From an uncultured Pelagibacteraceae bacterium (GTDB lineage: Bacteria; Pseudomonadota; Alphaproteobacteria; Pelagibacterales; Pelagibacteraceae): 42,998 bases of DNA. Both the position numbers and the translations under genes were made by a program. Positions within the stretch are counted from its first letter, which is position 1. Each line of letters opens with the position of its first letter. Shown piece by piece: positions 410 to 42,514 of the stretch. The notes beneath the pieces were generated by a model. That model ran no database searches and was not told the DNA's origin. It worked only from the letters and a program-made list of their open reading frames with translations. Location of the stretch: contig CACLMD010000006.1 of NCBI GenBank assembly GCA_902607945.1, positions 1-42,998 on the forward strand, given 5' to 3'.

Positions 410-1597
410 ATGCAATTAGCTAGATTTTTAAATAAAGTATTCAAAAAAGATGGTTTTATTTTAACAGATGCTAATTCAAAAGATTATATTATAGGTAACC
501 CAGGAAATAATCCAATAAAACTAAAAATTCTAAACAAAAAACTCCATTACAAACTTTTGTTACATCCTGATTTATATTTTGGAGAGGCTTATACTGATGG
601 TGAAATAATTATTGAAAATGGAACTCTTACAGATTTTTTAGATTTAGCATTAATGAATTTTGGAAGAGGAGAACTTAATTTTTTTAGCTATCTAATGAAT
701 AGACTTAGAGGATCGTATAGATATTTAACAAATTTTAATTTTATTAAAAAATCTAAAATGAATGTATCTCATCATTATGATATCTCTGATGATCTTTACG
801 ATTTATTTTTAGATCCAAAGAGACAATATTCCTGTGCTTATTTCAAAAATGAAAATGATAGTTTAGAAACTGCTCAGAATAATAAGATTCAACACATTAT
901 AAAAAAACTAAATATCCAACCTAATCAAAAAGTTTTAGATATAGGCTGTGGTTGGGGATCATTAGCAATTGATATAGCAAAAAGTGCAAAGTGTGAAGTA
1001 ACTGGAATTACATTATCAGAAAACCAATTTGAATATTGTAACAAAAAAGTTCAAGAAATGAATTTGGAAAATCAGGTCAAGTTTAAATTAATGGATTATA
1101 GAGAGCTTAATGAAAAGTTTGATAGAATAGTAAGTGTCGGAATGTTTGAGCATGTAGGAAGAAAATTTTACAAAAAATTTTTTAAAAAAATTGAAAATCT
1201 GTTAAAAGATGACGGTATTTCATTAGTGCATACGATAGGGTCAGTTAATCCCCCAAGAGACCCACATCCATGGATAACAAAATATATTTTTCCAGGTGGA
1301 TATACACCTAGCTTAAGTGAAGTAACAACCCCGATAGAAAAAGCTGGCTTAATACTTACTGATATTGAGGTTTTAAGACTTCATTACTCTCATACATTGA
1401 GACATTGGAAAGAAAATTGTATTAAAAATAAAGAAAAGATCATCAGTATGTTTGATGAAAAATTTTTTCGAATGTGGGAATTTTATTTAGCAGGATGTCA
1501 AATGGCTTTTAAGTGGGGTGATCAAGTTGTATATCAATTTCAACTTACAAAAAATTATAAATCTACTCCAGTGACTAGAGACTATATTTATGAATAA
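410..1597 (+). CDS. cfa: Cyclopropane-fatty-acyl-phospholipid synthase family methyltransferase
   Basis: This SAM-dependent enzyme family adds a methylene bridge to the double bond of unsaturated acyl chains in membrane phospholipids. The 395-residue product has the expected length and layout: an N-terminal lipid-binding part, HHYD at 121-124, YSCAYF at 140-145, the SAM-binding glycine motif VLDIGCGWGS at 175-184, and a GMFEHVG segment further on, all typical of Cfa. No transmembrane segment is visible, as expected for a peripheral membrane enzyme. The ATG directly follows the stop of the preceding aldolase gene. Some family members make other methylated fatty acids or act on other lipids, so the exact product is inferred. 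Confidence 0.92.
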   Translation: MQLARFLNKVFKKDGFILTDANSKDYIIGNPGNNPIKLKILNKKLHYKLLLHPDLYFGEAYTDGEIIIENGTLTDFLDLALMNFGRGELNFFSYLMNRLRGSYRYLTNFNFIKKSKMNVSHHYDISDDLYDLFLDPKRQYSCAYFKNENDSLETAQNNKIQHIIKKLNIQPNQKVLDIGCGWGSLAIDIAKSAKCEVTGITLSENQFEYCNKKVQEMNLENQVKFKLMDYRELNEKFDRIVSVGMFEHVGRKFYKKFFKKIENLLKDDGISLVHTIGSVNPPRDPHPWITKYIFPGGYTPSLSEVTTPIEKAGLILTDIEVLRLHYSHTLRHWKENCIKNKEKIISMFDEKFFRMWEFYLAGCQMAFKWGDQVVYQFQLTKNYKSTPVTRDYIYE

Positions 1598-1626
1598 ATT
1601 ATTGGTAGTATCGAACTTCTTTTTAA

Positions 1627-2823
1627 ATGAAAAAAAAACAAAAAAAACCTAAAAAAAATAAAAAATTTAAAAAAAAATCTTCAAAGTCTAAGATAATAAA
1701 AAAGTTAAAAAAAGTTCCAAAAGAAAGAAAAAAAATCATTAAAAGCAAGTTAAAAAGAACGAGTAAAAAAAAAAGAAAAAATATTAAAAAAAAAATTGCA
1801 TATTTAAAAACTGAAAAAATTCAAAAAGAAAGCCTTGTTTCTAAATTTGTTAAATTACAATTATCTTTAAAGCCTCAATTTAATTTTAAGATAAATTTTC
1901 AATTAGAAAAGTATATCCAAAGATTTTTTGACAAAATTTCTGAAACAATTTCAAATTATAAGATCTTAAAACAGGATGAAAAAAGAAGGTTGAAATTAGA
2001 AAAAATTGATGTCGAAAGAAAAGCTAAAATTGCAACTGAAAAACAAAAAAAAGAAGAACAAGCTTTAAGACTAAAATTTAAAGAACAAACTTTAAAAGAA
2101 GAAGAAAGATTAGAGAAACAAAGAACAAAAGATATAAAATTGTTTTTAAGAAAAGAACAAGCTCTTTTAAGAATTGAACAAGCGGAAAAACAAAAACAAT
2201 TTTTACAGCAATTAAAATTAGAAAAACAAATTGAAAAATTTAGAATTAGAGAAGTAAAAGAACTAGAGAAATTAGAAAAAATATCTTTAAAAGAAAAACG
2301 TGAAGATTACGCAGGTTTACAACAAAGAATAGAGAAGCTAAAAGAAAAATATCGAATAATCAGAGATCAAAAAATAAGAGAAAGAGTAGAAGCTTTAGGA
2401 ATAAAAATACAAGGTGACGAAGACAGAGAAACATTATTACAAAAAGAAAAAGAATATACAATTGCCCGTCAGAAAATTGAATTTGCCCTTGAAAGTTTTT
2501 ATAGAAGTGCAAGCAGTTTAGTTTTTCAATTAAACAAAAGACATATAACTCGTCATATGTCTATTTTAAGATGCATTGACCGAAGATTTGAAACGGGGGA
2601 AATTTTTATAAAGTGGGATGAATCTGATGATGAAGAATGGTTACTATTAATTTATATAAAAAACAATTCTCCTGATGAAGGCATTGTAATAGAAGATAAA
2701 ACTAATCCAGAAAAAAATATTTCACATGAATATAAAAATAACGAAATTTTTAAAGCTTCAGATGCAATGGTAGATGCGTTAACACAACTAATCGCTGAAC
2801 AAAGAGAAAAAAAAGCTAACTAA
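1627..2823 (+). CDS. Lysine-rich coiled-coil protein of unknown function
   Basis: I do not recognise this 398-residue protein. It has three visible parts. Residues 1-60 are extremely basic: 31 of the first 60 are lysine. Residues about 112-255 form a long charged helix rich in K, E, Q, L and R, typical of a coiled coil. Residues about 272-395 look globular, with aromatic residues, one cysteine (C316) and an acidic patch (DESDDEEW at 331-338). There is no signal peptide or transmembrane segment, so a cytoplasmic role is likely. The basic tail could bind nucleic acid, ribosomes or the membrane, but nothing here decides among these. It lies 29 bases after cfa and 27 bases before a small membrane-protein gene on the same strand. 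The 5' end holds several runs of eight or nine A, a possible slippage site. The long conserved-looking C-terminal domain argues for a real gene rather than a chance A-rich frame. Confidence 0.8.
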   Translation: MKKKQKKPKKNKKFKKKSSKSKIIKKLKKVPKERKKIIKSKLKRTSKKKRKNIKKKIAYLKTEKIQKESLVSKFVKLQLSLKPQFNFKINFQLEKYIQRFFDKISETISNYKILKQDEKRRLKLEKIDVERKAKIATEKQKKEEQALRLKFKEQTLKEEERLEKQRTKDIKLFLRKEQALLRIEQAEKQKQFLQQLKLEKQIEKFRIREVKELEKLEKISLKEKREDYAGLQQRIEKLKEKYRIIRDQKIRERVEALGIKIQGDEDRETLLQKEKEYTIARQKIEFALESFYRSASSLVFQLNKRHITRHMSILRCIDRRFETGEIFIKWDESDDEEWLLLIYIKNNSPDEGIVIEDKTNPEKNISHEYKNNEIFKASDAMVDALTQLIAEQREKKAN

Positions 2824-2850
2824 TTTTTCTTATTAATTGTAAGATTAGTT

Positions 2851-3144
2851 ATGTTTTTTGGTACTATTTTTCTTTTGACTATGTTTTTATTGCTTAGATA
2901 TGTATTAGCATGGATTGCATATGTTAATAAGCTAGACTCAAGACTCGGTGAGAGTACCTGGAGATGGTCTTATGATTATCAAGTAGTTGGAGAAAGAGAT
3001 TTTTCTGATTTAGATGATAAAGATTTTATAAGACTAAGAAGAAAAAAAAATAAACTTGTAACAATCATGTATACAATTTTTCTTATAATGTTTGTTTCTT
3101 TTATGTCCTGGTTAAGTAAATTTTTGATACTTGTACTTAGTTAG
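2851..3144 (+). CDS. Small membrane protein with two transmembrane segments, unknown function
   Basis: This 97-residue protein has a hydrophobic segment at about 2-25, a central hydrophilic stretch of about 40 residues rich in Asp and Arg/Lys (it includes WRWSYDY and RDFSDLDDKDF), and a second hydrophobic segment at about 70-96. The topology suggests a hairpin in the inner membrane with the charged loop on one side. I recognise no family. It follows the lysine-rich coiled-coil gene by 27 bases on the same strand, so the two may be co-expressed. It ends tail to tail with the minus-strand DCC gene, sharing the bases TTAG at 3141-3144. Confidence 0.7.
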   Translation: MFFGTIFLLTMFLLLRYVLAWIAYVNKLDSRLGESTWRWSYDYQVVGERDFSDLDDKDFIRLRRKKNKLVTIMYTIFLIMFVSFMSWLSKFLILVLS

Positions 3145-3488
3145 TTTTTTATTTGTTTTTTATTTTTTAAGTACAGAAAAAAAGCTATAATTTCATATCC
3201 AAAAGAAAATAAATTAAAGATAATTGGTAACTTAAAAAAATTGTATAAAAATTTATATTTTGGTATTTTTTTCCAAACTAAGAGAAATGCTTCTGCTCCT
3301 TGGGTAATTTTTTCCCCTTCTTTTACATGAAGTCTTCGTAATAGTTCTTTACTATTTTTAGAAGTTTCTCTCTTCGCTAAATCATTATTTGTTATATCAA
3401 TCCAGTCAATTTCTTGAATTTTTTCTTTTTTATACAAATCAATCTCTGCTTTACAAATTTTACACGAATTATTGAAATAAACTTTCAT
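3141..3488 (-). CDS. DCC-family (DUF393) thiol-disulfide oxidoreductase-like protein
   Basis: The 115-residue product starts with VYFNNSCKIC, which matches the N-terminus of the DUF393/DCC family, where a D-x-x-C-x-x-C motif resembles a thioredoxin active site. Here the cysteines are C9 and C12, and the usual aspartate is replaced by Asn in NNSCKIC. Residues about 82-105 are hydrophobic and may contact the membrane. The family is assumed to act in thiol-disulfide exchange, mostly without direct biochemistry, so the role is inferred. The gene is divergent from tldD, with about 90 bases between starts, and shares its stop-codon bases with the convergent small membrane-protein gene. Confidence 0.8.
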   Translation of the reverse strand: MKVYFNNSCKICKAEIDLYKKEKIQEIDWIDITNNDLAKRETSKNSKELLRRLHVKEGEKITQGAEAFLLVWKKIPKYKFLYNFFKLPIIFNLFSFGYEIIAFFLYLKNKKQIKN

Positions 3489-3581
3489 ATATATATCTAT
3501 AATTACTACTTAACTTAAATAAGTACATGCGTGAAATACTCCAGTTGAAAATTCTATTTAACGAACTATGTATTGATAATT

Positions 3582-4994
3582 ATGAGTAATTTTTTTGATA
3601 AATCTGATTTATCTAGAAATGAGGCAGAAAATATTATTTCTGATACTCTTAAAAAATGTGATGATGGCGAGCTATATTTAGAGAACTCTAAATCAGAAAG
3701 CATTTTGTTAGATGATAATAAGATAAAAAATTCAAGTTATAGTTCAGATCTAGGTTTTGGATTCAGGGCAGTATCAGGCGAAATAGTTGCTTACTCCCAT
3801 TCTAATGAAATATCAAAAAATTCATTAAGGCAATCATCAGATAATTTAAAATCAACTCTTAAATCTGCTAAAGGTAACTACAATCATTCTATTCCTAAAA
3901 CCAACAAAAAATATTATGAAAATATTAATCCAATCGAACAAAAATCACTTAAAAATAAAGTTGAAATTTTAAATGAGGTAAATAAATATTTAAGATCAAA
4001 AGATAAAAGTGTTAAGCAAGTTACTGCTAATTTTAGTGGCGAACAAAAATCTATAGAAATAATCAGATCCGGAGGTGAAACATTAACTGATATACGTCCT
4101 TTAGTAAGATTTAATGTATCCGTAATGCTTGAAAAAAATGGAAGAAAAGAGACAGGAGTGTATGGAGTTGGCGGAAGACAATCTTATGACGCTTATCTTA
4201 AAGAAAATAACTGGAAAAATGTATGCGATGAAGCTTTAAGAATAGCTTCTGTAAACTTAGAGAGTAAGCCAGCACCAGCAGGCGAAATGAAAGTAGTTTT
4301 AGGACCTGGATGGCCAGCAATTTTAATTCATGAAGCTGTAGGGCATGGCTTAGAAGGTGACTTTAATAGAAAAAAAACCTCTGCATTTCACAATTTAATG
4401 GGTGAAAAAGTAGCGAGTGAAGGTGTTACAATTATAGATGATGGTACTTTGAATAATCGAAGAGGAAGTCTTACAATAGATGATGAGGGAACCCCTACAG
4501 AGAAAACTGTACTAATAGAAAATGGAATTTTGAAAAACTTTATGCAAGATAGATTGAATGCTCGATTAATGAAAACTAAATCTACTGGTAGTGGTAGAAG
4601 AGAAAATTTTAGACATATTGTTCTACCGAGAATGAGAAATACTATGATGTTAAGTGGCAAACAAACACAAGACGAAATGATTAAATCTGTCGATAAAGGA
4701 ATCTTTGCTGTCAGCTTTGGGGGCGGCCAAGTTGATATAACTTCTGGAAAATTTGTATTTAATTGTACAGAAGCATATGAGATAATAAATGGCAAAATTG
4801 GATCTCCTATTAAAGGAGCAACACTTATAGGTGATGGCCCATCAATTTTAAAAGAAGTTTCAATGGTAGGCAATGATATGATGCTTGATCCTGGTATCGG
4901 AACTTGTGGAAAAGCTGGCCAAGGTGTCCCCGTTGGAGTTGCCCAGCCTTCTATATTAATAAACAAGATGACAGTTGGTGGCACAAAACTATAA
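3582..4994 (+). CDS. tldD: Metalloprotease TldD
   Basis: TldD is the catalytic half of the TldD/TldE (PmbA) heterodimer, a cytoplasmic zinc protease that trims peptides such as microcin B17 precursor and, in some bacteria, the CcdA antitoxin. The zinc motif HEAVGH lies at residues 250-255 and a conserved cysteine in LDPGIGTCGKAGQG near the C-terminus fits the third ligand. Length is 470 residues from the ATG at 3582. The frame also opens at a TTG at 3573, but the ATG gives the usual N-terminus (MSNFF), so it is preferred. The stop at 4992-4994 directly abuts the ATG of the partner gene at 4995, as expected for subunits made together. The natural substrate in this organism is unknown. Confidence 0.93.
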   Translation: MSNFFDKSDLSRNEAENIISDTLKKCDDGELYLENSKSESILLDDNKIKNSSYSSDLGFGFRAVSGEIVAYSHSNEISKNSLRQSSDNLKSTLKSAKGNYNHSIPKTNKKYYENINPIEQKSLKNKVEILNEVNKYLRSKDKSVKQVTANFSGEQKSIEIIRSGGETLTDIRPLVRFNVSVMLEKNGRKETGVYGVGGRQSYDAYLKENNWKNVCDEALRIASVNLESKPAPAGEMKVVLGPGWPAILIHEAVGHGLEGDFNRKKTSAFHNLMGEKVASEGVTIIDDGTLNNRRGSLTIDDEGTPTEKTVLIENGILKNFMQDRLNARLMKTKSTGSGRRENFRHIVLPRMRNTMMLSGKQTQDEMIKSVDKGIFAVSFGGGQVDITSGKFVFNCTEAYEIINGKIGSPIKGATLIGDGPSILKEVSMVGNDMMLDPGIGTCGKAGQGVPVGVAQPSILINKMTVGGTKL

Positions 4995-40608: not shown

Positions 40609-41676
40609 TTAGTAAAACAATGCTTTAACAAAAGTCAATTTTGGCATTTTAAGAATTATAGATAAATCTTCAAAAAAATTACTTTTATTAGACATAAATT
40701 TTATAACAGTCTTTGGAGAACTCTTAAACATTTTAAAGAAAATATCAGGCATCATTTCAGGGTTTTTATCTAGAACTCTTAAAAAAATATCATCTAAGAA
40801 TTGATATTTTTTACTTATCTCAAATTTTTTAGCATTTGAAATATTTTCAATATTTTGACATATGTATTTACTGTGTTGCTGAATATTTAGAAAAGTATAA
40901 CCTGTACTTAATCTAGTCATACCTCCGGCAGTTCCAATATTAATCTTATTTCTTTCTTTTTCATAAGTTGGATAGAATAGGGGTATTGCACCTTCCTCTT
41001 TATAAGTTATTTTATAATTTCTTAAGTTTAAACGTTTTTCAATGTAATCTTTTATTTGACTGTCGTAATCTTTTTGAGAACCATCATTCATTTTTGATAA
41101 CCAAGTTGTTTCAATTAAGGCTGTATTTTTGGAGTAGGGAAGAGTATAAAAAAAGTGAACACTTTCTCTCTGGTCACAATCAAAATCCATAAGGTTAAAA
41201 ATTTCATCATCAAAAAAATTATTTTGAGTTTCAACTTCCACACCACAAAAATGTTGCCAAAGGTTACGATGATCTTTTTTAATCGATGGAACGCTATTAA
41301 AAATAAAAGAATTTTTTGAATTAATTTCGCTTAAATCTTTAAAATAAAAAATATTTTTATTTTCTTTTAATTTATTGTTAATTTTTTCATAGAACAATCC
41401 ACTATCAATACTTTGGTATGGATAAATTTTACATTCTAAATGATTAGTTTTTTTTGGTATATTAATAGAAAAATTTTCCCAACTTTTTTTAACACAATCA
41501 TCAAAATTGTGCTCTGCCACCTTCCAAAAGGACCATGTTTTATCTTTTTTGTATTCTTTTCTTGGCTCAATAATAGCCAAAGTTTTATCTTTTAATTTTT
41601 CATTGATTTCAAGTTCATACGCTATTGATAATCCTGCACAACCACCACCAATAATAATATAATCAAATTCTCTCAT
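40609..41676 (-). CDS. crtY: Lycopene beta-cyclase
   Basis: CrtY forms the two beta-ionone rings of beta-carotene. The 355-residue flavoprotein starts with the FAD-binding motif DYIIIGGGCAGLSIAYEL and contains FNSVPS and GTAGGMTRLSTGYTF, both typical of CrtY. The middle WQHFCGVEVET resembles the family's Q-x-F-x-G segment. It overlaps crtB by 14 bases and precedes blh by 12. Confidence 0.93.
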   Translation of the reverse strand: MREFDYIIIGGGCAGLSIAYELEINEKLKDKTLAIIEPRKEYKKDKTWSFWKVAEHNFDDCVKKSWENFSINIPKKTNHLECKIYPYQSIDSGLFYEKINNKLKENKNIFYFKDLSEINSKNSFIFNSVPSIKKDHRNLWQHFCGVEVETQNNFFDDEIFNLMDFDCDQRESVHFFYTLPYSKNTALIETTWLSKMNDGSQKDYDSQIKDYIEKRLNLRNYKITYKEEGAIPLFYPTYEKERNKINIGTAGGMTRLSTGYTFLNIQQHSKYICQNIENISNAKKFEISKKYQFLDDIFLRVLDKNPEMMPDIFFKMFKSSPKTVIKFMSNKSNFFEDLSIILKMPKLTFVKALFY

Positions 41677-42514
41677 CTAAATTTATTTCTTCATTAATCA
41701 AATCATGATCATGTTGTATTTCATCATCTTTTTTATAACTGAATGATAGTTTAATTAAGTCAAAAATTGAAAGAAAAGTCTCTAAAAGTTTTTCGATATT
41801 TGAAACATATATTTTTCCTGAATTTCGATAATTTTCTAAATTTTTTTTGCTTTGAATTTTTTGTCCTATTTTTCTATAAACTCTTCTAGCAACCAAAATA
41901 GAAAAACGAAAACTTATAGGAATATCTTTAATTGAATAAAATGAGTTTTGATAAAATGTATCAGCAAGATTGATAGTTGATGAAATTTCCTCAAAACTTT
42001 CATTTATATAAAAACGATTATTTCCTGAGTCTTCAATTACATCTCTCGATATATTAGTAAGCTGCATCGCAATTCCAAGATCAATTGCTGACTTGAGTGA
42101 ATTTTTTTTATTCACTTTTAAAATTTTTGCCATCATCAATCCAACAGTTCCAGCTACTCTGTAGGAGTAAACCAATAGATCTTTTTTTGTATTTAATTTA
42201 ATTTTATCTTTAATGTCTGATTTAATTCCAATTAGTAAATCTTGAACTATTATTAAAGATATATTGAACTCTTCAATTAGATCCCACATATTTTTGATAA
42301 TAGGATCATCAAAGTTCTTTTGATTAAAATCATTTTCAAAATGACTAAATTTTTTTTCTTTATTTTCTATTTTTTCATTATCATCTGCAATATTATCTAC
42401 AACTCTACAAAAATCATACAAAGCAGAACATTTTTTAAAGGTTTCTTTGGGTAAAAAAAAACCAGCCCAATTGAATGATTTTGCGTAAACAGATAAGTAA
42501 CTTTTATTAGACAT
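41663..42514 (-). CDS. crtB: Phytoene synthase
   Basis: CrtB joins two geranylgeranyl diphosphates into phytoene. The 283-residue protein has the two aspartate-rich motifs, DNIADD (D40, D44) and RDVIEDSGNNRFYI (D158, D162), and YSYRVAGTVGLMM, which is family-typical. It overlaps crtI by one base and crtY by 14 bases. Confidence 0.94.
   Translation of the reverse strand: MSNKSYLSVYAKSFNWAGFFLPKETFKKCSALYDFCRVVDNIADDNEKIENKEKKFSHFENDFNQKNFDDPIIKNMWDLIEEFNISLIIVQDLLIGIKSDIKDKIKLNTKKDLLVYSYRVAGTVGLMMAKILKVNKKNSLKSAIDLGIAMQLTNISRDVIEDSGNNRFYINESFEEISSTINLADTFYQNSFYSIKDIPISFRFSILVARRVYRKIGQKIQSKKNLENYRNSGKIYVSNIEKLLETFLSIFDLIKLSFSYKKDDEIQHDHDLINEEINLDERI

What the first reader, a model, noticed from the sequence alone, without database searches (positions are those of the whole stretch)
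1627..3144. Lysine-rich coiled-coil protein paired with a small hairpin membrane protein
The 398-residue protein combines an extreme basic tail (31 Lys in the first 60 residues), a long coiled coil (about 112-255) and a globular C-terminal domain I cannot assign. The gene 27 bases downstream encodes a two-helix membrane protein with an acidic loop, a possible docking partner for a basic protein. In so streamlined a genome, keeping a long unknown protein suggests a needed role, for example nucleoid-membrane or ribosome-membrane tethering. The pairing and the role are inference.
Basis: partly seen in the sequence, partly recalled or inferred. Interest (0 to 1): 0.6.

Follow-up and report, generated by a model that had tools for sequence, protein, structure and literature searches.

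The report
Lysine-tailed rod protein of SAR11
The window carries a widely conserved, undescribed SAR11 protein made of a strongly positive tail, a long helix and a small globular head, which probably ties nucleic acid or another negative surface to a protein partner; the small membrane protein beside it is a neighbour in some genomes but not a conserved partner.

Summary
Both genes are real. The 398-residue protein (window 1627-2823) belongs to an undescribed family: 167 of 197 genomes of the window's SAR11 family, 74 of 77 good ones, have it. Profile searches beyond that family found only chance-level hits, and no known sequence family matched significantly. The Lys-rich tail is present in all 22 aligned members. 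The 'coiled coil 112-255' is modelled as one charged helix, 94-256, with a heptad signal only towards its end, about 196-252. The C-terminal domain is a confident alpha-beta5-alpha fold (pLDDT 87) without a significant structural match. The proposed pair fails: the hairpin gene is adjacent in 28 of 49 same-genus genomes, was detected in 3 of 14 genera, and its loop is net positive. Best explanation, inferred: an architectural tether whose tail binds a polyanion (nucleoid DNA first, rRNA second) and whose head binds an unknown protein. Function is unproven; interest lies in its near-universality in SAR11.

The parts
1627..2823 (+). gene of the 398-aa Lys-tail / rod / alpha-beta head protein
   Evidence: ORF; conservation; structure
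1627..1806 (+). polycationic N-terminal tail, residues 1-60 (31 Lys, 3 Arg, 1 Glu)
   Evidence: family-wide charge; low model confidence
1903..1956 (+). amphipathic start of the long helix, residues 93-110 (muH 0.71)
   Evidence: a best window of muH 0.46-0.71 was found in the first 45% of each of 16 representatives (chosen as the best window, so biased upward)
1906..2394 (+). long charged helix, residues 94-256 (163 residues, about 24 nm if straight)
   Evidence: composition and periodicity
2212..2382 (+). segment with heptad (coiled-coil) signal, residues 196-252
2425..2817 (+). C-terminal alpha-beta5-alpha domain, residues 267-397; holds 22 of the 37 invariant or nearly invariant columns
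2851..3144 (+). 97-aa two-helix membrane protein; neighbour in some SAR11 genomes, not a conserved partner
410..1597 (+). cyclopropane-fatty-acid-synthase-like methyltransferase upstream (PF02353); such a gene is directly upstream in 12 of 24 loci inspected
3141..3488 (-). DCC1-like thiol-disulfide oxidoreductase (PF04134), convergent with the hairpin gene

Best explanation
The protein is a SAR11-family-specific architectural tether that acts without the hairpin protein. Shown by computation: a polycationic tail almost free of acidic residues, a predicted continuous charged helix of about 160 residues with a coiled-coil signal near its C-terminal end, and a conserved alpha-beta5-alpha head. 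Inferred: the tail binds a polyanion without sequence specificity, most likely the nucleoid DNA and second most likely ribosomal RNA. The coiled-coil part makes a dimer or oligomer. The helix works as a spacer of about 24 nm. The head, which holds most of the conserved columns, docks on a conserved protein partner that is not encoded next door. Amphipathic residues 93-110 may add contact with the inner membrane.
For: Tail: 96 unique full-length members that passed a filter (see Tried and rejected) have 26-40 K+R (median 34) and 0-3 D+E in their first 60 residues. K-E exchanges are 64 of 2685 K changes in the tail against 215 of 1556 in the rod, while K-R is the commonest exchange in both (908 and 845). 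This suggests that AT-bias alone does not explain the tail. Rod and head: AF2 helix 94-256 and confident head; heptad signal at 196-252. Conservation: 74 of 77 good family genomes; of 6 invariant and 31 nearly invariant columns in 22 members, 22 lie in the head (267-397), 9 in the long helix, 4 in the tail and 2 between. Independence from neighbours: the gene persists after different upstream genes and without a detected hairpin gene. Precedent for a Lys-rich end plus coiled coil as a nucleoid protein: HbhA (PMC10665949, passages read).
Against: No assay, localisation or co-fold supports any ligand. Lys-rich tails also bind RNA, ribosomes and anionic lipids. Neutral replacements of Lys are common in the tail (about 62% of the K changes, K-N 466 of 2685), and the exchange counts come from related pairs. 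SAR11 already has HU/IHF-type proteins (30 of 30 genomes), so a further nucleoid protein is not obviously needed. The full-length model has pTM 0.40, was predicted as a single chain, and gives the tail low confidence (block means 37-67 over residues 1-100), with part of it drawn as helix (32-77), so disorder of the tail is not shown. The coiled-coil signal is short and not significant in 3 of 17 members at 217-252 and in 8 of 17 at 196-252.
Confidence: 0.38

Rival explanations
1. Ribosome- or RNA-associated factor: the Lys tail binds rRNA and the rod and head recruit a translation or RNA-decay partner.
For: The tail is polycationic, like many ribosome-binding extensions (general knowledge). 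The gene is present in nearly all good family genomes (74 of 77). A hibernating-ribosome chain appears among middling fold matches (8fmw_W, Z 4.8, 84 residues, rmsd 3.9), which is too weak to weigh.
Against: No significant sequence or structural relation to any ribosome factor. The immediate upstream genes in 21 of 24 loci (3 cut) are not translation genes.
Confidence: 0.24
2. Intermediate-filament-like (crescentin-type) cytoskeletal protein that shapes the curved SAR11 cell, with the basic tail and amphipathic segment lying on the membrane.
For: Basic end, helical rod and globular end. P. ubique HTCC1062 was counted as having 2 uncharacterised rod-domain proteins (PMC2680258, section 5 read); whether this is one of them cannot be told from the text. 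MreB-family matches in 30 of 30 genomes, strong (E < 1e-138) in 29. Amphipathic segment 93-110.
Against: The coiled-coil signal covers only about 57 residues, and 112-190 shows little or none, against the more than 80 residues used as the rod criterion in that paper. The head holds 22 of 37 conserved columns, the long helix 9.
Confidence: 0.14
3. Membrane-surface protein in which the polybasic tail and amphipathic helix 93-112 bind anionic phospholipid, acting with the cyclopropane-fatty-acid-synthase-like enzyme encoded upstream.
For: muH 0.71 at residues 93-110, and a best amphipathic window of muH 0.46-0.71 in the first 45% of each of 16 representatives. The CFA-like gene lies directly upstream in 12 of 24 loci inspected.
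Against: The upstream gene is dapA-like, DsbA-like or an aldolase in 9 of the other 12 loci, and the remaining 3 are cut. The segment may simply be an oligomerising part of the long helix. Windows were picked as the best per protein.
Confidence: 0.12
4. Nucleoid-membrane tether made with the 97-aa hairpin protein as its docking partner.
For: Adjacent genes, same strand, 27 bp apart. The loop has a short, nearly invariant acidic stretch SDLDD.
Against: Adjacent in 28 of 49 same-genus genomes. Hairpin family detected in 3 of 14 genera. Outside genus g1 it lies in another gene neighbourhood in the 5 loci inspected. The loop is net positive.
Confidence: 0.05

Closest known systems
HbhA of Mycobacterium tuberculosis (Lys-rich, coiled-coil nucleoid-associated protein; PMC10665949)
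   Same: A Lys-rich end joined to a helical coiled coil; the Lys-rich end is the DNA-binding part there (passages read).
   Different: In HbhA the Lys-rich part is C-terminal, rich in Lys, Pro and Ala, and an 18-residue hydrophobic part is N-proximal; no alpha-beta head is mentioned in the passages read. A sequence relation was not tested directly.
Crescentin and FilP-type rod-domain proteins (PMC2680258)
   Same: Helical rod between two other ends; uncharacterised rod proteins were counted in P. ubique.
   Different: Coiled-coil signal only at about 196-252, a conserved alpha-beta C-terminal domain and a polycationic tail.
Frataxin/CyaY, YjbR and CapZ-alpha type alpha-beta-alpha folds
   Same: Similar order of helix, antiparallel sheet and helix (VIA-align Z 8.0 CapZ-alpha, rmsd 3.9 over 98; Z 7.8 CyaY, rmsd 3.7 over 96; Z 6.7 YjbR, rmsd 3.9 over 91). 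Foldseek's first row is human frataxin, probability 0.89.
   Different: None significant with Foldseek (frataxin E 0.12, TM-score 0.35/0.43), and Z in this range is common for unrelated folds. 7-12% identity in those three rows.
DUF485 (PF04341), for the 97-aa hairpin protein only
   Same: Weak profile similarity at residues 56-86; 4 of 14 members at E <= 0.01, best 8.1e-4.
   Different: The window protein scores 18.7 bits against the curated cut-off of 28 and covers about a third of the profile.

Membership tests
HbhA / histone-H1-like nucleoid-associated proteins | Lys-rich domain joined to a helical segment | tested here: met
HbhA / histone-H1-like nucleoid-associated proteins | DNA binding and nucleoid localisation | not testable with these tools
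   needs a binding assay or imaging
HbhA / histone-H1-like nucleoid-associated proteins | sequence match to a known nucleoid-protein family | tested here: not met
   no Pfam or NCBIfam family at a curated cut-off for the window protein; no nucleoid family among Pfam hits of 22 members
Crescentin / IF-like rod-domain proteins | more than 80 residues in coiled-coil conformation (criterion of PMC2680258) | tested here: inconclusive
   one long helix in the model, but heptad signal only in about 57 residues; COILS itself was not run
Crescentin / IF-like rod-domain proteins | filament assembly, role in cell shape | not testable with these tools
   needs purified protein or depletion
Frataxin/YjbR-type fold | fold match of the head domain | tested here: inconclusive
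   Foldseek frataxin E 0.12, VIA-align Z 6.7-7.8 for YjbR and CyaY
DUF485 (97-aa protein) | score over the curated cut-off | tested here: not met
   18.7 against 28 bits
Conserved two-gene module with the hairpin protein | co-occurrence and adjacency across related genomes | tested here: not met
   28 of 49 adjacent; 3 of 14 genera

The most novel reading that the evidence does not exclude
A SAR11-specific chromosome organiser: the Lys tail holds the nucleoid, the helix spaces it and the orphan head docks on the envelope or division apparatus, taking over a role that other alphaproteobacteria give to organisers such as PopZ (role of PopZ recalled). No PopZ-family match was found in 30 SAR11-family genomes, while the control Caulobacter genome rang.
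Probability: 0.12. Interest if true: 0.8.

Novelty: new variant of a known kind. Interest (0 to 1): 0.45.

Why it matters
SAR11 is among the most abundant bacterial groups and has stripped its genome (general knowledge), so a protein of about 400 residues kept in nearly every family member and matching no known family marks an unexplained core function. [quoted passage not shown] The present result makes it a defined target with a clear domain plan, and removes the neighbouring membrane protein as its assumed partner.

Tried and rejected
Remote homologues of the head: one profile (A1) over 289 class genomes gave 8 matches at E <= 0.1. Three are SAR11 and five others lie at E 0.006-0.1. Of those five, three lie in ORFs that I read and that look like a UDP-GlcNAc-epimerase-type enzyme, an exported protein of another kind and a SurA-type chaperone (names recalled from sequence). 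The other two lie in frames of 57 and 33 aa with stops inside the match and were not read further. All were rejected as chance.

PHROG hits (one member each, E >= 0.02) and Pfam hits (PF01304 at E 0.016 and PF05577 at 0.19; two DUFs in one member each) were rejected as chance. BFVD structure matches of the head are not significant (best E 0.03, probability 0.97, an uncharacterised phage protein) and name no function. tblastn of the head and of the hairpin protein in phage records: no match. Full-length fold search: 108 matches at E <= 10, none at E <= 0.001.

Single-alpha-helix reading of the rod: i to i+4 and i+3 charge pairing is not above shuffles for 94-256 (z 0.15), and the z-scores of 16 representatives lie between -1.4 and 1.6; only 112-160 of the window protein shows z 1.9, p 0.036. 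An 11-residue (3.67) period over 112-255 has p 0.042. Both left open. Heptads at 91-112: p < 0.05 in 1 of 13 members.

Absence of the rod gene in three genomes (G127, G008, G061): the CFA-like gene of each runs to, or ends 3 bases before, the end of the locus, which is shorter than the flank asked for, so these absences are probably contig ends. The other genomes without a match were not resolved this way.

Prior art: seven literature searches listed no paper that by title or abstract describes this protein. Only CC-licensed PMC papers were searched, and the HTCC1062 locus tag was not known to me.

Caveats on counts: one search dropped members shorter than 300 residues, without a clear Met start near Lys/Arg or with fewer than 12 K/R in the first 30 residues, which favours rich tails. 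One search gave a wrong tail value for L145 (GTG start). The '27 of 80' printed counts loci whose ORF starts within 120 bases of the locus end (25) plus two interrupted ones (L075, L080); of the 25, 20 have an ORF under 350 aa by my count, and five are (nearly) full length.

Full report
OBSERVATION. The window lies in genome G000, contig C6; the named relatives of its 398-aa protein are Pelagibacteraceae or other Pelagibacterales records in all 80 loci kept, so it is SAR11. ORF 1627-2823 (+, 398 aa) and ORF 2851-3144 (+, 97 aa) are as described, 27 bases apart. The first 60 residues hold 31 Lys and 3 Arg with one Glu. Among ATG-started window ORFs of at least 100 aa, the highest Lys count in any 60-residue stretch is 32 here, and the next ORF has 19. 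Eight of the gene's eleven A-runs of 7 or more bases lie in the tail.

WHO HAS IT. A protein search of 197 genomes drawn from the same family (f1) found the 398-aa protein in 167, in 74 of 77 genomes that are at least 90% complete and at most 5% contaminated, and in 12 of 14 genera. A profile of the C-terminal part (A1, 17 sequences) matched 92 of 147 genomes of the order, 91 of 105 good ones. All 92 are in family f1; among the 20 listed genomes without a match are 18 of the sister family f2 and two of the window's genus (G127, G143), and 35 more without a match were not listed. In 289 class genomes there were 8 matches at E <= 0.1: three are SAR11 and five are chance-level (three of those five read). 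At three apparent absences (G127, G008, G061) the upstream CFA-like gene ends at, or 3 bases before, the end of the contig stretch, so an assembly gap is likely. In 25 of the 80 loci the ORF begins within 120 bases of the contig end, 20 of them with an ORF under 350 aa (partly counted by hand); the A-rich tail may break assemblies (inference).

WHAT IT MATCHES. No Pfam or NCBIfam family reached a curated cut-off for the window protein. A scan of 22 members gave only two one-member DUF hits at E about 0.008. PHROGs gave only one-member hits at E >= 0.02. PDB sequences gave nothing at E <= 10 with the profile and one chance hit at E 1.1 with the single sequence. tblastn of the head and of the hairpin protein found nothing in phage records.

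ANATOMY, TAIL. A Lys/Arg-rich start is visible in all 22 aligned members. 96 unique full-length members that passed a filter (at least 300 aa, Met start, at least 12 K/R in the first 30, so the set favours rich tails) have 26-40 K+R and 0-3 D+E in their first 60 residues. In 275 pairs of 80-97% identity, K-R is the commonest exchange of Lys in the tail (908 of 2685) and K-E is rare (64 of 2685), whereas in the rod K-E is 215 of 1556. AAA to GAA and AAA to AGA are both single transitions, so acidic residues seem to be selected against and drift in an AT-rich genome is not the whole cause. Against this, neutral replacements are common in the tail (K-N 466; about 62% of K changes are to uncharged residues), and the pairs share ancestry.

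ANATOMY, ROD. AF2 on 22 aligned members gives one helix 94-256 (mean pLDDT 79.2, pTM 0.40; residues 1-100 have block means of 37-67 and part is drawn as helix 32-77). The helix is 58% E/K/R/Q. Hydrophobics show no 3.5-residue period over 112-255 (p 0.995; 3.67 period p 0.042), and at 3.5 the stretch before residue 254 is significant in 3 of 17 representatives. By best-register a/d occupancy against shuffles, 112-146 has no heptad signal in any of 15 representatives (lowest p 0.42), 147-190 has p < 0.05 in 3 of 16, 196-252 in 9 of 17 and 217-252 in 14 of 17 (segments chosen after the profile, and members are related). A strongly amphipathic window sits at 93-110 (muH 0.71), and a best window of muH 0.46-0.71 was found in the first 45% of each of 16 representatives (biased upward by choosing the best). 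It may bind membrane or help oligomerise.

ANATOMY, HEAD. Residues 240-398 model with pLDDT 87 and pTM 0.76 as two helices, five strands and a helix. In the 22-sequence alignment the invariant residues are M1, Y242, L288, R293, F375 and D383; with the 31 nearly invariant ones, 22 of 37 lie in 267-397, 9 in 94-256 (mostly 205-246), 2 between and 4 in the tail. Foldseek against PDB gave 171 matches at E <= 10, none at E <= 0.001; the first row is frataxin at E 0.12, probability 0.89. VIA-align gave Z 8.0 (CapZ-alpha, rmsd 3.9 over 98), 7.8 (CyaY, 3.7 over 96), 7.6 (Med17C, 3.6 over 98) and 6.7 (YjbR, 3.9 over 91). That tool warns that such Z values may mean only a common arrangement. I conclude no family from them.

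THE PAIR. From the coordinates same-genus genomes have the rod gene. The hairpin gene is within 60 bp in 28, at 3.0-4.3 kb in 10, and on another contig (7) or more than 0.4 Mb away (2) in 9; none was detected in 2. 'Another contig' in a draft genome is not proof of distance, but five of these nine places were fetched and show no rod gene within the stretch held (L223-L227). A profile of the hairpin family finds it in 102 of 194 family genomes, 59 of 75 good ones, and 3 of 14 genera. In five loci of the two other genera it follows a gene of the Polyketide_cyc family (PF03364 in the one tested), with radical-SAM and DivIC-like genes further upstream and a cluster that includes PgpA on its other side. 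In the single-contig genomes G005, G009 and G022 the rod gene is present and no hairpin gene was detected. The hairpin loop (residues 26-70) has 11 K/R and 9 D/E. By the positive-inside rule (general knowledge) it is probably cytoplasmic, so contact is not excluded, but it is not an acidic receptor overall. The hairpin protein has 26 invariant columns of 97 among 14 sequences, 19 of them in that loop, so it has a function of its own.

NEIGHBOURS. In 24 loci inspected, the gene directly upstream of the rod gene on the same strand is CFA-synthase-like in 12, dapA-like in 4, DsbA-like in 3 and an HpcH-type aldolase in 2; 3 are cut there (CFA-like and dapA-like by BLAST to window genes, Pfam names for one example of each, the other DsbA-like and aldolase-like genes by eye). 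The rod gene stays while its neighbours change, so its function probably does not depend on them. No terminator-like site was found in 1400-3700 and promoter-like sites were not above shuffles (14 against 13.3).

CONTEXT. Among 30 family genomes, HU-type proteins match in 30. MreB-family matches occur in 30, strong (E < 1e-138) in 29. PopZ (PF10691) matches in 0, while the Caulobacter control rings. These leave both the nucleoid and the cytoskeletal readings open.

MECHANISM. Shown: charged tail, predicted long helix with a coiled-coil signal near its end, predicted folded head, family-wide conservation, no conserved pairing. Inferred: the tail binds a polyanion, the rod spaces and perhaps dimerises, and the head binds a protein. 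I put the nucleoid first, because a Lys-rich end plus coiled coil has a precedent in HbhA (PMC10665949, passages read). The RNA/ribosome reading is close behind, and membrane or cytoskeletal readings follow. Bagchi et al. (PMC2680258; section 5 and passages read) counted two uncharacterised rod-domain proteins in P. ubique HTCC1062. This protein's orthologue may be one of them, but the text does not say.

VERDICT.

Noticed in passing
window 2851-3144: The 97-aa hairpin protein is a family of its own with a strongly conserved loop (around SxWRWSYDYxVxGxRDxSDLDDKxFVRLRRKRN) and weak DUF485 similarity. Its gene changes neighbours between genera.
   Followed up: partly
L218, L219, L220, L221, L222: In genera g2 and g4 the hairpin gene lies in a shared order: enolase-like, DivIC-like, radical-SAM (lipoyl-synthase-like), Polyketide_cyc-like, hairpin, then CinA-like and PgpA-like genes (in L218 one more ORF lies between). 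Pfam names were tested in L220 only; enolase, lipoyl synthase and CinA are recalled.
   Followed up: no
window 1627-1806: Eight A-runs of 7-10 bases encode the Lys tail. Many public contigs end inside or near this gene, and one genome (G160) and two loci (L075, L080) show an interrupted frame, so slippage or assembly errors are likely here.
   Followed up: partly
L146, L150, L204: In genera g9 and g12 the rod ORF overlaps the end of a DsbA-like ORF by 1 to 14 bases (stop codon not counted, mechanical starts), which suggests translational coupling.
   Followed up: no
window 40609-42514: Two adjacent ORFs look like lycopene cyclase and phytoene synthase (recalled resemblance, no family search), a carotenoid cluster.
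   Followed up: no
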